A DNA stretch of 64,000 nt, from positions 56,849,601 to 56,913,600 of the forward strand of contig CM055097.1 in the NCBI GenBank assembly GCA_029204225.1, written 5' to 3'. Under the pieces are notes generated by a model, which was not told the origin of the DNA, made no database searches, and saw only the letters and a list, made by a program, of their open reading frames with translations. A program made the position numbers and the translations under genes. Below are positions 42,794 to 48,349 of this stretch, piece after piece. Position 1 is the first letter of the stretch. Each line of letters starts with the position of its first letter. This stretch comes from Diphasiastrum complanatum (taxonomy: Eukaryota > Streptophyta > Lycopodiopsida > Lycopodiales > Lycopodiaceae).

Positions 42794-43440
42794 TGTGAAA
42801 ATTGTCAACATTTCCTTGTCTAGTTTTAGGCCAAAATTGCTAAAAATGGCACATAGTTTAGGATCTGACTTTTCACACGTGTGAAACAGGTCTAGATATT
42901 TTTAGTAAGTGTATTTTTTCAGTATGAAGAAGTGTCAAACTTCAAGACCTTCGAAATGAGTCCATTTTCATGTATTTTGGACATATATGCCAATTTTACC
43001 TATATAGGGCATATTTTAGGTAAGGAGGGTCTAGAGAGAGGAGAGAGAGTCATCTCTCTCAGCTATATATAGCAGGTAGGCCGTGGAGAAACAGGTTGGA
43101 GCAGATCCATTGTATTCATTTGCTTAATGAGAGATTTTTCTATTGGGTTCTCCTTCCATTGTTGGCATTGTGTAGTGATTGAGTTCAAGCTTTGTGTGTA
43201 TGATCTTAGGTGCTTTCCAAAAGTGGTAGGCTGATGTATTATGGACTGTATAATGCTATTTTGGGCCGCACTTGATGTTTATGGAAGTTTCCATTTGTGA
43301 TAAATGCTTTTTGATCAAGTTCTTTGCATTCTAGGTAGCATAGAATGTGTTGCCAATTCCTAGCTTATGTAGTTTGGAGTGCAAGCATTCAAGCCAATGA
43401 TCTTGGAGTTTAGATCCACTTAGGATCTGTATTTTTCACA
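42794..43440 (+). repeat. 5' LTR of element E (647 bp)
   Basis: Starts TGTGAAAATTGTC and ends GTATTTTTCACA. TATATATA at 43064-43071 is the likely core promoter, just after an inverted repeat GAGAGAG...CTCTCTC. Related to the solo LTR at 13772-14421. Confidence 0.95.
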
Positions 43441-43453
43441 TGGTATCAGAGCT
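43441..43453 (+). promoter_or_regulatory. Primer binding site of element E
   Basis: TGGTATCAGAGCT follows the LTR directly, a perfect match to the plant initiator tRNA-Met type over twelve bases. Confidence 0.9.
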
Positions 43454-44614
43454 GGTTGGCTTCTATTCATAGTAAGTATTCCATTTTTGGTGATATTTGG
43501 ATGTTTGATCGAGTTCTAGCATGATTTTGCATTGCTTTGTTGATCAAATCTTACTAACCTTTGTTTTGTGAGTTGAACTTGTGGATCAAAAGCATATTTC
43601 AGGTCTATTGAAGATCAGAGGCTGAAAAGAAACTATTTTGGATCAGATCATAACACCTAATCATTTGTTGATTGTGAGGCTTGTGCATATTCAATACTAA
43701 CAATGTTCTTTTCAATCCTATTGTTGACAATCTCCATTCTTGGATGAACACTCTCCTTAAGTGGATGAAACTTCTCCTTAAGTGGATGACAAATGCTCTT
43801 TTGAGTGAGTTGTAATTCTCCTAAAGGCTGAGCAAAGCTCCCATTTGGATGAAAGATCCCCTTTTTTGGGTGAACATATTGTAAGCTCCATTGTGAAGAG
43901 CATATTGTAAAGATTGTCATCAATTTTGGCATAAATTTTGGTGTACTTTGTTGAGCATGTAAGTAACTCTCCTTATGTAATTTGATTGGAGCATTTGCTG
44001 GAAGGTGTTAACCATTATGCAAGTGTGTTTTCAGGTTCTTAACAGGTTGAGGAACATTCTCATGTGAAGTGATCTTAGATCTACATCTAAACACCAAATT
44101 TTGACAAGATAGTGAAGCTAGTCTTGTGATTCACTAAGTGTGCTCATTCATTCACCTCTAAATCTTGTATTTATCACTTGCTGGAGTTTATAAACTTTTA
44201 GAAGTGTGGTTTACATGTGGTTTTACAGGTTGAATCAATATCTTAGTGTGGTGATCATATGTTGATCAAGTTTGTTCATTACTAGGTAATTTTGACATCC
44301 TAGTTTTGGGTATTTTCTAAGAATGCAAGTAACTCTTCACACCATAACTTGATTTGGTCACTTGCTGGAAAGTTTGAGAGCTTAAGCAAGAGTGTGTTCA
44401 GGTTGGTTTGAGTTTGTAATCCATTCTTAGTGTGTGCAAAGTGTTGCATGTGTTTCAATCTTCCTTTCTATGCTTGAAAGCCAAATAGTTTCAAGATAGA
44501 GGTCATTTAGGGTTCTAAATCTTTTAAGATCTTCTCCTTCTTCATTTATTGAGAGAAAGGAGAGTGCTAGGTGCATTAGAACAGAGCCTAAGGACACAAG
44601 AAGATTTTAGCATC
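43454..44614 (+). other. Leader of element E
   Basis: About 1.16 kb without a recognised gene between primer site and ORF. It includes a small run of AGTGGATGA/TGGATGAA units at about 43740-43870, and a repeated phrase containing AACTCT...CTTGCTGGA(A/G) near 43970, 44175 and 44340. Confidence 0.5.
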
Positions 44615-47600
44615 ATGACATCCAATGGTGGAATCATGTTGGAAGCTAAAGAGAGGTTAAACTCTACAAACTATTCAACTTGGAAAGTGAGGATGGAGTC
44701 TTTACTAGAGTTGAATGAGCTAATGGATATAGTTGTGGGAATTGAAGAAAGACCTCTAATTCTTCAAGAGCAACTAAATTTTGATAGAAGGGCTAAAAGA
44801 GCCTTACATATCATAAAGATGAATGTTACCAATGAACTTCTTAAAGAAGTTGGTAAATGTACTTCTTCAAGTGAAGCATGGAATGCTTTGAAGAAGATCT
44901 ATGAGTCCAAATCCACATCTAGGGTTCTCACCCTAAGAAGGCAAATCTTCCAAAGTTGTCAAAGAGAGGGAGAGAGTGCACATTCATTTGTCTTGAAGGT
45001 TAAATCCTTGAATGATGATCTAGCATGCATAGATGAAAGCATAAAGGATGGGGAACTAGTTCAAGTCATGTTGAATGGTTTGCTTGATGAACATTCTAAC
45101 CTTGTACAATGCTTTGCTATACAAAAGTCCTTGCCAAGTGTCAATGACTTGCAAGAGATCTTGGTGGCTGAAGAGCATAGGTTGCAAGCCAAAGGTGGTG
45201 GTGCATCAACACAAGGTGGAGATGAAGAAGCTCTTTTCACAAAGGGCAAGTTCAAAGGCAAGTGGTCCAAGCAAGGTAGTTTGGAGAATGGAAAGCATTC
45301 TTCTTCTTTGCAAAGTAGGAAGCAAGATAAGTCCAAGTTCAAATGTTTTTATTGTGGGATAAAAGGACATTTTGCAAATGAATGCCATAAGAAACAAAAT
45401 GCTAGATCTAGGTTGAGATCTAATGTACTTCTTGGAGATGATAATTGTTGTGCTAACTTGGCAAGCTTTGGTGAATCTATGGTCAATTTTTTGGATCCAT
45501 TGGATCTTGAAGATGCACTAGTGTTACCTACTAGTCATATGGAGTCATGTGGAGCTAAATTAGCATCATGTTTGTACTCTTCTACTCATGGACTTCCAAG
45601 GCTTGTTGGTTCTTCAATGGTGCTAGATGGCAAGTGCAAAAATGGAAAAGGTAAGGAAGGAGCTAACTTCATCAATGGAGTTGATGAAGATTCTTCTTTG
45701 GAAGTGATTGTTGCTAATGACTTGTTTGTTCATATGGAAAAAGATGGAGATGCTAAGTGTCATTATTTGCAAGAAGATGGTTGTTCTTCTAATTCTTTTC
45801 ATATTGATGTATGTAATCATGTGGGAAAAGATGATGGTGCTTTGAGCATGCTTGAAGGAAATGGTTCTTTTACATCTTTTTGTGATAAAGTCATTTGTGC
45901 AACAAGTGGTGTCACATTTCTTCATAAAAAGAGTAGATCAAAGGTTTCTATCATGAGACTTGGTGAGGGAGATCACAAGTCAAAAGGAAGAGAAGTATGT
46001 GAAGTGTTCAAAGTAGGATGTACTTTGAATGATGTTTTTATGAACGATAGTGAGGAAGAATCATTATCATATGACTCATTACCTAAATCATTGAGTAGAA
46101 GTTCATGTTTGAAAAGAGAGAGTACTTCAATCACTCTTATGTTGAAGGTACTAAGGATTCTTTTCTTGGCTTCTAATATTCAAGAGTCTTCTACTTCTTA
46201 TGGTGCAACTATCAAGAGGGAGGTTTCTAACTTTTGTGGTGCTAGCATTAAGAGGGAGTCTTGTGAAGGAAAGGGCAATGGAAGAGTGGTTCTTGGGAAG
46301 ATCCAAAGCATGGATCTAACATCTCTTCATCAACTCAAAGCATTCTATGATTGTGGTGGATTGTTCATTCATGGTCAAGATGGCAAAAGGTTGGTTGAAG
46401 AAGACTACATGGAGCAACTCAAGTGGCAACTTCTTCAAGGCAAGGGAGATATCATTGGTGAGCTTATTGAGGTTTGTTATGAACTCAAGAGGGCTGTTTT
46501 GATTAGGTTTGATACTCATCTTCACCTACTCTACTTCATGTTAAATGGAAATGTTGGAATCTATCTTTTGGTTTATGATGGTGGCATTGTTTTCACTAAC
46601 TATAGTGAAGGGTCAAATTTGAGCATTGATGAGATCTTGTGGGATCTTAATCATGTGTTTGAGAGGGAGTATCTTCAGAGTTTCAGATCTGAAGATGTTC
46701 ACATATGCAAGATCTTTGATGTCTTATTGGAAGATCAAGAGGTTGATCTTGGATTGCTTCATCAACACCAAGAGACAAGTGGCAATTCGAAGCTAGTGAA
46801 AAGCATCAAAGAAGAGACAAATGGTCAAGGCATTTTGGATCTGTTTTTACAGGTTCTTGAAGGTTCAAGTAAGGTCTTTGGAGCTGCAAGGAAGTGTCTT
46901 CTTACTCCACCTCACTTGCCTAATCTCATGTATGAACATTGTTATGTCAATGTGTTGAAATTGTCAAATTTCAATAAAACTAGTTCCATAGTTTTGCATC
47001 CTTTGGATCTTGGAGATGGAATAGTTATCATTGCTGGTTTGTATGATCAAGTACATGAATTAATTCAGATCTTGAAAGGTATTGAAGTGGTCAATATGTT
47101 TTCTTTTGAACAAAGTTCAAGATCTAGTATTCTAGTGTTGGCAAATTGGCAACTTGTTGACATTGTAGGATCAAGCGTTGTGTGCAAATCTTGTGGAGGT
47201 ACTTCAAGTATTTCAAGTTCAGGTTTTGGTCATTCAAATGGAGTAGGGAACACATCTTTTTGGCATTCATTCACTCAAAGGCTTTCATGGATTGAAGATC
47301 TACAAAGGCAAGGTGGTGATGGAAGTTCATTCATGGAGATGCATGTTGCATTCACTATATGTATAGTGAAATGTGGAGGAGGCATGCAAACACTTGTTGA
47401 TCACTTTCATTTACAACTTGTTTGCTGCTATTTTACAGAGAAACCAGAGATGGATACATGGAGGAATTCATTAATTGAGATTCTATGTTCTTTTACATGT
47501 ACCATTTTTATGATTCTATGTAAAATTGATGTAAGAAATAGTGAAGCATCCTATATGGACACTATTATCTATATCAATTATGTTGTGTCCTATTTTGTAC

Positions 47601-47689: not shown

Positions 47690-47690
47690 G

Positions 47691-47702
47691 TTGAAGAGGG
47701 AG
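47691..47702 (+). promoter_or_regulatory. Polypurine tract of element E
   Basis: TTGAAGAGGGAG lies directly before the 3' LTR and just after the ORF stop. Confidence 0.85.
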
Positions 47703-48349
47703 TGTGAAAATTGTCAACATTTCCTTGTCTAGTTTTAGGCCAAAATTGCTAAAAATGGCACATAGTTTAGGATCTGACTTTTCACACGTGTGAAACAGGT
47801 CTAGATATTTTTAGTAAGTGTATTTTTTCAGTATGAAGAAGTGTCAAACTTCAAGACCTTCGAAATGAGTCCATTTTCATGTATTTTGGACATATATGCC
47901 AATTTTACCTATATAGGGCATATTTTAGGTAAGGAGGGTCTAGAGAGAGGAGAGAGAGTCATCTCTCTCAGCTATATATAGCAGGTAGGCCGTGGAGAAA
48001 CAGGTTGGAGCAGATCCATTGTATTCATTTGCTTAATGAGAGATTTTTCTATTGGGTTCTCCTTCCATTGTTGGCATTGTGTAGTGATTGAGTTCAAGCT
48101 TTGTGTGTATGATCTTAGGTGCTTTCCAAAAGTGGTAGGCTGATGTATTATGGACTGTATAATGCTATTTTGGGCCGCACTTGATGTTTATGGAAGTTTC
48201 CATTTGTGATAAATGCTTTTTGATCAAGTTCTTTGCATTCTAGGTAGCATAGAATGTGTTGCCAATTCCTAGCTTATGTAGTTTGGAGTGCAAGCATTCA
48301 AGCCAATGATCTTGGAGTTTAGATCCACTTAGGATCTGTATTTTTCACA
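47703..48349 (+). repeat. 3' LTR of element E (647 bp)
   Basis: Read base by base against 42794-43440 without finding a difference. Confidence 0.95.

What the first reader, a model, noticed from the sequence alone, without database searches (positions are those of the whole stretch)
42794..48349. Very young non-autonomous LTR element whose only product is a 1024-aa Gag fusion
Seen: identical 647-bp LTRs, CTTTC target duplication, perfect primer site and polypurine tract, one uninterrupted frame with a Gag head, one zinc knuckle and ~760 residues that carry no protease, integrase or RT signature. Known: Gag-only (TR-GAG) elements exist in plants and rely on partners. Unusual: the long C-terminal region has stayed open in a mobile copy, suggesting selection for a function, for example packaging, trans-mobilisation control or an accessory protein. 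Two hydrophobic stretches near its end add interest.
Basis: partly seen in the sequence, partly recalled or inferred. Interest (0 to 1): 0.9.

Follow-up and report, generated by a model that had tools for sequence, protein, structure and literature searches.

The report
Gag-only hitchhiker carrying decayed polymerase
A young jumping gene that makes one long protein, a shell protein fused to a region that includes a dead remnant of polymerase, probably spreads by borrowing the enzymes of a full-length relative in the same genome, with which it appears to have exchanged parts.

Summary
The element is real as described: identical 647-bp LTRs, CTTTC duplication, primer site, polypurine tract, one 1024-codon frame. 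It belongs to a recent burst: the exact LTR-end/primer junction is counted 1294 + 1294 times.

Of 14 copies with that junction, 10 carry Gag-protease and 4 Gag-C. Two of the 10, followed downstream, continue into integrase and RT in an open frame: likely helpers. Some Gag-C copies carry the helper's Gag; the focal type carries another (dS about 1), although LTR and C-terminal region stay about 99% alike: a Gag cassette swap.

The C-terminal region is partly decayed pol: about 105 of 764 residues match the helper's RT palm, with YVDD lost (E 4e-6); the rest has no traced source. Against a related Gag-protease-C family it shows 469 substitutions and no stop (21 expected), but dN/dS about 0.78 against 0.11 for Gag. 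Selection seems to keep the frame open more than the sequence. Why is inferred, not shown. Verdict: new variant of the Gag-only (TR-GAG) kind.

The parts
42789..42793 (.). target site duplication CTTTC, left copy (right copy 48350-48354)
42794..43440 (+). 5' LTR; 42794-43282 differs from the helper compared (110 mismatch or gap columns for 489 positions), from about 43283 on nearly identical to it
43441..43452 (+). primer binding site TGGTATCAGAGC (initiator-tRNA-Met type, recalled)
43441..44614 (+). leader; shared with the helper up to about 44412-44477
44477..45346 (+). swapped cassette: dense fixed differences between the two subtypes that are otherwise nearly identical
44615..45394 (+). 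Gag (residues 1-260) with CCHC knuckle at residues 243-257
45395..47686 (+). C-terminal region, 764 codons, fused in frame; open, coding-like codon usage overall
45455..45610 (+). segment (residues 281-332) whose match in L022 lies near the other end of the C-terminal region: moved or duplicated piece
46349..46663 (+). decayed RT palm (residues 579-683), helper YVDD aligned with YDGG
47687..47689 (+). stop codon TAA, 13 bases before the 3' LTR
47690..47702 (+). polypurine tract region GTTGAAGAGGGAG
47703..48349 (+). 3' LTR
39619..50002 (+). older Copia element (LTRs 39619-40437 / 49166-50002, 95.2%, duplication TACTT) into which the focal element is inserted

Best explanation
It is a non-autonomous Copia element that hitchhikes on a full-length Copia with the same U5, primer site and leader. 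Shown: it encodes Gag plus a C-terminal region that includes a decayed RT palm; likely helpers with open pol frames exist in the genome; the element is mosaic, with LTR upstream part and C-terminal region of its own, U5-leader shared with the helper, and Gag in two versions, one of them the helper's; the C-terminal frame stays free of stops while its amino acids drift. Inferred: its RNA is copackaged with helper RNA in mixed Gag particles, helper enzymes copy and insert it, and template switching there makes the mosaics. Inferred, and my preferred reason for the open frame: translation must run almost to the 3' LTR, because a stop after Gag would leave an untranslated tail of more than 2 kb, exposed to nonsense-mediated decay; the decayed pol then serves mainly as translated filler.
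For: Helper: 10 of 14 same-junction copies have the second-type Gag followed by protease; two of them (L031, L033) continue for 937 open codons, in both, into the 3' LTR; Pfam on one (L045): RVT_2 1.2e-78, rve, SH3, gag_pre-integrs; LTRs 3/655 different in one, TSDs ACTCC and AGAGC. Sharing: 12 mismatch or gap columns for 1101 positions in 43283-44412 (selecting pattern left out) against 110 for 489 upstream. Swap: Gag differs at 160-162 of 780 nt (dS 1.03, w 0.12) where LTR and C differ by under 1%. Of 147 scored focal-type Gags 109 have exactly 1053 codons, 37 fewer, one 4330. RT remnant: blastp 3.6e-6, Smith-Waterman 90, maximum of 300 shuffles 64, reversed 40; hhalign 1.4e-5 and 8.6e-6, prob 80-83 (not independent of it). 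Frame: 469 substitutions to L049, 0 stops, 21.0 expected, minimum 9 in 1000 simulations; 13 of 16 indels multiples of 3, against 1 of 6 in an LTR control. Constraint: C w 0.78-0.82, Gag 0.11-0.12. Plant NMD acts on 3' UTRs above 300-350 nt: passages of PMC4417159.
Against: Only about 105 of 764 residues (plus a 43-column stretch in L022) are traced to pol; L022's counterpart of focal 262-558 shows no pol similarity (z -0.2), and Pfam RVT_2 does not hit the remnant. dN/dS below 1 is weakly significant (p 0.02-0.07), so some constraint on the protein is likely. Within the second family Gag-PR is as relaxed as C (0.69 and 0.64). Open copies were picked for the stop test. Against the NMD step: even the open element's tail is not short (13 bases plus the LTR part before the RNA end; a TATA-like box lies 270 bases into the LTR), so it may already reach 300-350 nt, and upstream ATGs are visible in the leader. 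No expression, NMD or packaging data. Helpers were chosen by the junction pattern, so others may be missed; only the top 147 of 121273 Gag candidates were scored. Of the 4 Gag-C copies in the junction sample only 1 has helper Gag.
Confidence: 0.6

Rival explanations
1. The C-terminal region is a functional accessory protein (packaging, trans-control or membrane role); the pol-like stretch is only its raw material.
For: Coding-like codon usage; frame kept over 469 substitutions; dN/dS below 1 at p 0.02-0.07; module present in two families with different Gags.
Against: dN/dS 0.78-0.82 while Gag in the same pairs is 0.11-0.12; large in-frame insertions, deletions and a moved segment tolerated; no family or sequence match to solved structures. 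The low-confidence models (mean pLDDT 34 and 26) say nothing either way.
Confidence: 0.22
2. The frame is open only because the copies are young progeny of one intact master; there is no selection on openness.
For: The 59 scored copies are at least 99% identical, the 8 fetched ones have 0-6 LTR differences; most have had little time to decay.
Against: Two families that diverged by hundreds of substitutions are both open and both multiplied; 21 stops expected, 0 seen; indels mostly in threes. 109 of 147 copies chosen by Gag alone keep the 1053-codon frame.
Confidence: 0.06
3. The Gag-C fusion is a trans-dominant poison: it enters helper particles, lacks its own protease and inhibits or steers the helper.
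For: The focal element lacks protease, unlike the related family; Gag is under purifying selection (w 0.12 pairwise, about 0.20 on its branch).
Against: Selection on a mobile copy favours its own spread, not inhibition; no functional data; weakly constrained C region.
Confidence: 0.1

Closest known systems
TR-GAG elements (Chaparro et al. 2015, recalled, not held; AT5TE33540 in PMC8704663, abstract and passages)
   Same: LTR pair, one Gag ORF, no enzymes, a similar full-length relative as suggested helper; the Arabidopsis one (562-aa Gag) was seen to transpose in ddm1
   Different: Here Gag carries a further 764 codons including a decayed RT palm, the copy number is high, and two Gag versions are exchanged
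Dasheng / RIRE2 of rice (PMC5473765, passages)
   Same: Non-autonomous family with putative autonomous partner; chimeric elements between them reported
   Different: As recalled, Gypsy-related and without such a coding region; here Copia with a long open frame
Intra-family recombination in ONSEN bursts (PMC5668417, outline and abstract)
   Same: Pairwise recombination resembling recombinant retroviruses during bursts
   Different: Here inferred from genome copies, between a non-autonomous element and its likely helper, exchanging a Gag of dS about 1
BARE-2 (named in PMC10552921, passages; details recalled)
   Same: Non-autonomous Copia relying on a relative
   Different: BARE-2 lost Gag expression (recalled); here Gag is what is kept

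Membership tests
Copia LTR retrotransposon, non-autonomous | LTR pair, TSD, PBS, PPT, Copia-type Gag | tested here: met
Copia LTR retrotransposon, non-autonomous | no working protease, integrase, RT, RNase H | tested here: met
   No Pfam hit to any of them; RT palm remnant lacks YVDD
TR-GAG | single ORF encoding Gag between LTRs, no pol | tested here: inconclusive
   Single ORF with Gag and no functional pol, but three quarters of the ORF is extra and contains a decayed RT piece
TR-GAG | mobilised by a full-length partner | not testable with these tools
   Likely partner found; mobilisation not shown
BARE-2 type | Gag start or expression lost | tested here: not met
   Gag open from ATG 44615; criterion recalled
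LARD / TRIM | no coding capacity | tested here: not met
   1024-codon frame with Gag; criterion recalled

The most novel reading that the evidence does not exclude
Selection acts on the openness of the frame rather than on the protein: a retrotransposon keeps about 760 codons, in part decayed pol, translatable so that its genomic RNA is not treated as a message with an over-long untranslated tail. A dead polymerase then survives as 'translated filler', and Gag can be exchanged for the helper's without disturbing it.
Probability: 0.35. Interest if true: 0.75.

Novelty: new variant of a known kind. Interest (0 to 1): 0.58.

Why it matters
To my knowledge (recalled) it is unclear why non-autonomous retrotransposons keep long open frames. 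Here one genome holds the likely helper, two subtypes that differ almost only in Gag, and a second family with the same C-terminal module plus protease. That makes it possible to test separately whether Gag identity, the shared U5-leader, or an uninterrupted frame decides mobilisation.

Tried and rejected
Scans of viral contigs with the whole protein and with Gag, and of prokaryote contigs with the C region, gave no relative. The LTR DNA search on the genome returned nothing although copies exist; the tool skips very common words. Structure predictions were of no use: mean pLDDT 33.8 for the single sequence and 26.1 with three sequences; no fold search was made. A weak resemblance of the 3' tail of the host element to the focal C region (shuffles as good: 4 of 500 for 113 residues, 1 of 500 for the whole frame) was not supported against pol (z -0.5) and is left open. 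Polymorphism among nine near-identical copies is too sparse to use (C: 4 synonymous, 7 nonsynonymous, 2 stops; Gag 1 and 4 in one type, 2 and 5 in the other); the two stop copies and one with a shortened frame were fetched because the table showed them. Paper searches failed and worked at 82, 83, 88, 117, 121, 125; in those capped listings I saw no report of a Gag fused to decayed pol under frame selection, but I read only the named abstracts and passages.
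Full report
The two LTRs are identical over 647 bp, the flanking duplication is CTTTC, the primer site follows the 5' LTR directly, and one ATG frame of 1024 codons runs from 44615 to 47689. Pfam sees a Copia-type Gag and a weak CCHC knuckle; residues 261-1024 match nothing credible in Pfam, PHROGs or PDB sequences. The long frame is not chance: no stop in frame against 37 and 81 in the two other forward frames, a longest open run of 195 codons in 300 simulated sequences, and codon usage above all 500 stop-free simulations. 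The codon signal is uneven: in 3 of 8 windows, two of them after residue 860, a reverse frame scores higher.

The element sits inside an older Copia element (39619-50002; LTRs 95.2% identical; duplication TACTT), which has a related Gag (51% over its first 70 residues), a protease-like DSGA frame and an integrase-side SH3 domain.

The window lies in a genome of 1.74 Gb in 5176 contigs, unnamed here. The C-terminal region gave 59 scored matches out of 19166 first-look candidates, the best ones only; all 59 cover residues 1-764 at 99% or more, and 57 have no stop. Open frames are 1035 codons in 43, 1053 in 11 and other lengths in 5 (counted by hand). The exact 29-base junction of LTR end and primer site is counted 1294 times forward and 1294 reverse, control 0 and 0. 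The equal numbers look odd, but the 100 places listed span 78 Mb, which extrapolates to about 2,200. With focal Gag as query, 147 of 121273 candidates were scored, all 99% or more; 109 show exactly 1053 codons, 37 fewer, and one row says 4330, which I did not follow.

Eight copies from the table were fetched whole, three of them because they showed a stop or a shortened frame. Their LTR pairs differ at 0-6 of 631-647 positions and their C regions from the focal one at 0-8 of about 2292. Three (L023, L024, L029) have the focal Gag with 1-4 changes; five (L025-L028, L030) differ in Gag at 160-162 of 780 positions plus an 18-base insertion. Fixed differences between the groups are sparse up to 44412 (6 positions), dense from 44477 to 45346, and absent after that. 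The two Gags differ with dS 1.03 and dN 0.126 (w 0.12). The simplest reading is that recombination exchanged the Gag cassette between elements whose Gags had long evolved under constraint, with the right edge at the zinc knuckle.

To look for a partner, 14 of the 100 listed junction copies (about every fifth of the first 66) were sampled by 701 bases each across the end of Gag. Ten have the second-type Gag (98.6-99.2%) followed by a protease; four have Gag followed by the C region, three with focal-type Gag (L035, L039, L043) and one with second-type Gag (L036). Downstream of two of the ten (L031, L033) an open frame of 937 codons runs into the 3' LTR; in one of these Pfam finds integrase, SH3 and RT (RVT_2 1.2e-78), and the other is nearly identical in protein. 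RNase H is assigned by position only (recalled). Their LTRs are 85% identical to the focal LTR overall. These are likely helpers: in one the LTRs differ at 3 of 655 positions, and the duplications are ACTCC and AGAGC (the 330 differences printed there for the second probably reflect an ungapped comparison across a length change). Against one helper, the focal positions 42794-43282 show 110 mismatch or gap columns for 489 positions, whereas 43283-44412 show 12 for 1101, leaving out the 29 bases used for selection. The second-type Gag matches the helper's at 97-100% by window, the focal type at 72-85%. So the element has its own LTR upstream part and C region, shares U5, primer site and leader with the helper, and exists with either Gag. 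With the Gag of L022 as outgroup, the focal-type branch has dN 0.049 and dS 0.247, the helper-type branch 0.073 and 0.787; synonymous changes are near saturation, so this is rough.

The C-terminal region has relatives. One of 20 samples of 10 kb at round coordinates (L022; four of the 22 loci then held were partly or wholly N) held a different family whose Gag (68%) and protease are followed in the same frame by a C region homologous to the focal one over nearly its full length, with one later frame break and one stop. A search with part of it scored 131 of 14259 candidates at 91-100%, 20 of them with open frames of 1203 codons, one of these with a stop noted in the match. L049 (1203 codons) and L050 (1228) confirm Gag, protease (DSGA and DSGV) and C region in one frame. 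The focal element lacks the protease. A piece of the C region (focal residues 281-332) sits elsewhere in L022, so the region has been rearranged.

Where does it come from? Against the helper's pol, focal residues 579-683 match the RT palm: blastp 3.6e-6, Smith-Waterman 90 against a shuffled maximum of 64 in 300; hhalign 1.4e-5 and 8.6e-6. Helper LLIYVDDI corresponds to focal LLVYDGGI, so the catalytic pair is gone. In L022 a further 43-column stretch matches the helper's region before RT (2.8e-5), out of its pol order. The first third of the region (tested in L022) shows nothing (z -0.2), and no Pfam model hits the remnant. So the region is at least in part decayed, reshuffled pol; most of it has no traced source.

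What kept it open? Focal against L049: 469 substitutions, 0 stops where 21.0 are expected (minimum 9 in 1000 simulations), and 13 of 16 indels are multiples of three; the other three (11, 4 and 5 bases) lie within about 160 bases. L050 gives 490, 21.1 and 12 of 15. A small LTR control gives 1 of 6. Against L022, which was found without regard to its frame, 147 substitutions in one stretch give 0 stops (7.0 expected) and 10 of 11 indels in threes; in a second stretch 94 substitutions give 1 stop (4.1 expected by the same simulation; for the stop). L049 and L050 were chosen for being open, but L049 belongs to a multiplied family, so an amplified lineage was open. Yet amino acids drift: C region w 0.78 (p 0.03) and 0.82 (p 0.07), with single segments from 0.63 to 1.01, Gag 0.11 and 0.12 in the same pairs; the L022 pair gave 0.63-0.81 by segment and 1.07 for the moved piece, pooled by hand to about 0.73, p 0.02. 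dS is 0.15-0.70 in C segments but 1.6-1.85 in Gag, so the C module too seems to have passed between families. Against a clean reading, within the second family Gag-protease and C are equally relaxed (0.69 and 0.64), and w below 1 suggests some constraint on the protein.

My reading is that Gag-C RNAs are packaged with helper RNAs, that template switching produces the mosaics, and that translation through to the 3' LTR is what is selected. Plant messages with 3' untranslated regions above 300-350 nt are subject to nonsense-mediated decay (PMC4417159, passages); a stop after Gag would leave more than 2 kb. That step is inference, and it is not clean: a TATA-like box lies 270 bases into the LTR, so the open element's own tail may already be about 300 nt or more, and upstream ATGs stand in the leader. 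TR-GAG elements (PMC8704663, abstract and passages), Dasheng/RIRE2 (PMC5473765, passages) and ONSEN recombinants (PMC5668417, outline and abstract) are the closest known cases.

Noticed in passing
39619-50002: Older Copia element hosting the focal insertion; its 3' tail (48352-48690) is open for 113 codons and weakly resembles the focal C region.
   Followed up: partly
43922-44037 and 44288-44404: A direct repeat of about 117 bases (72%) inside the leader of the focal element.
   Followed up: no
50452-51042 (-), 52511-53443 (+), 56603-57250 (+): Three open frames of 197, 311 and 216 codons beside the nest with no Pfam match at E 0.1.
   Followed up: partly
window 2796-5104 and 36207-38544: Two copies of another repeat, 82% identical over 2.4 kb, with a third, inverted copy near 29418-30799.
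   Followed up: no
G000:C7:33112118-33112897: One focal-type Gag lies in a stated open frame of 4330 codons, possibly read through a gap.
   Followed up: no
G000:C6:56947405-56949696: Another near-identical C region lies about 34 kb beyond the window's end on the same contig.
   Followed up: no
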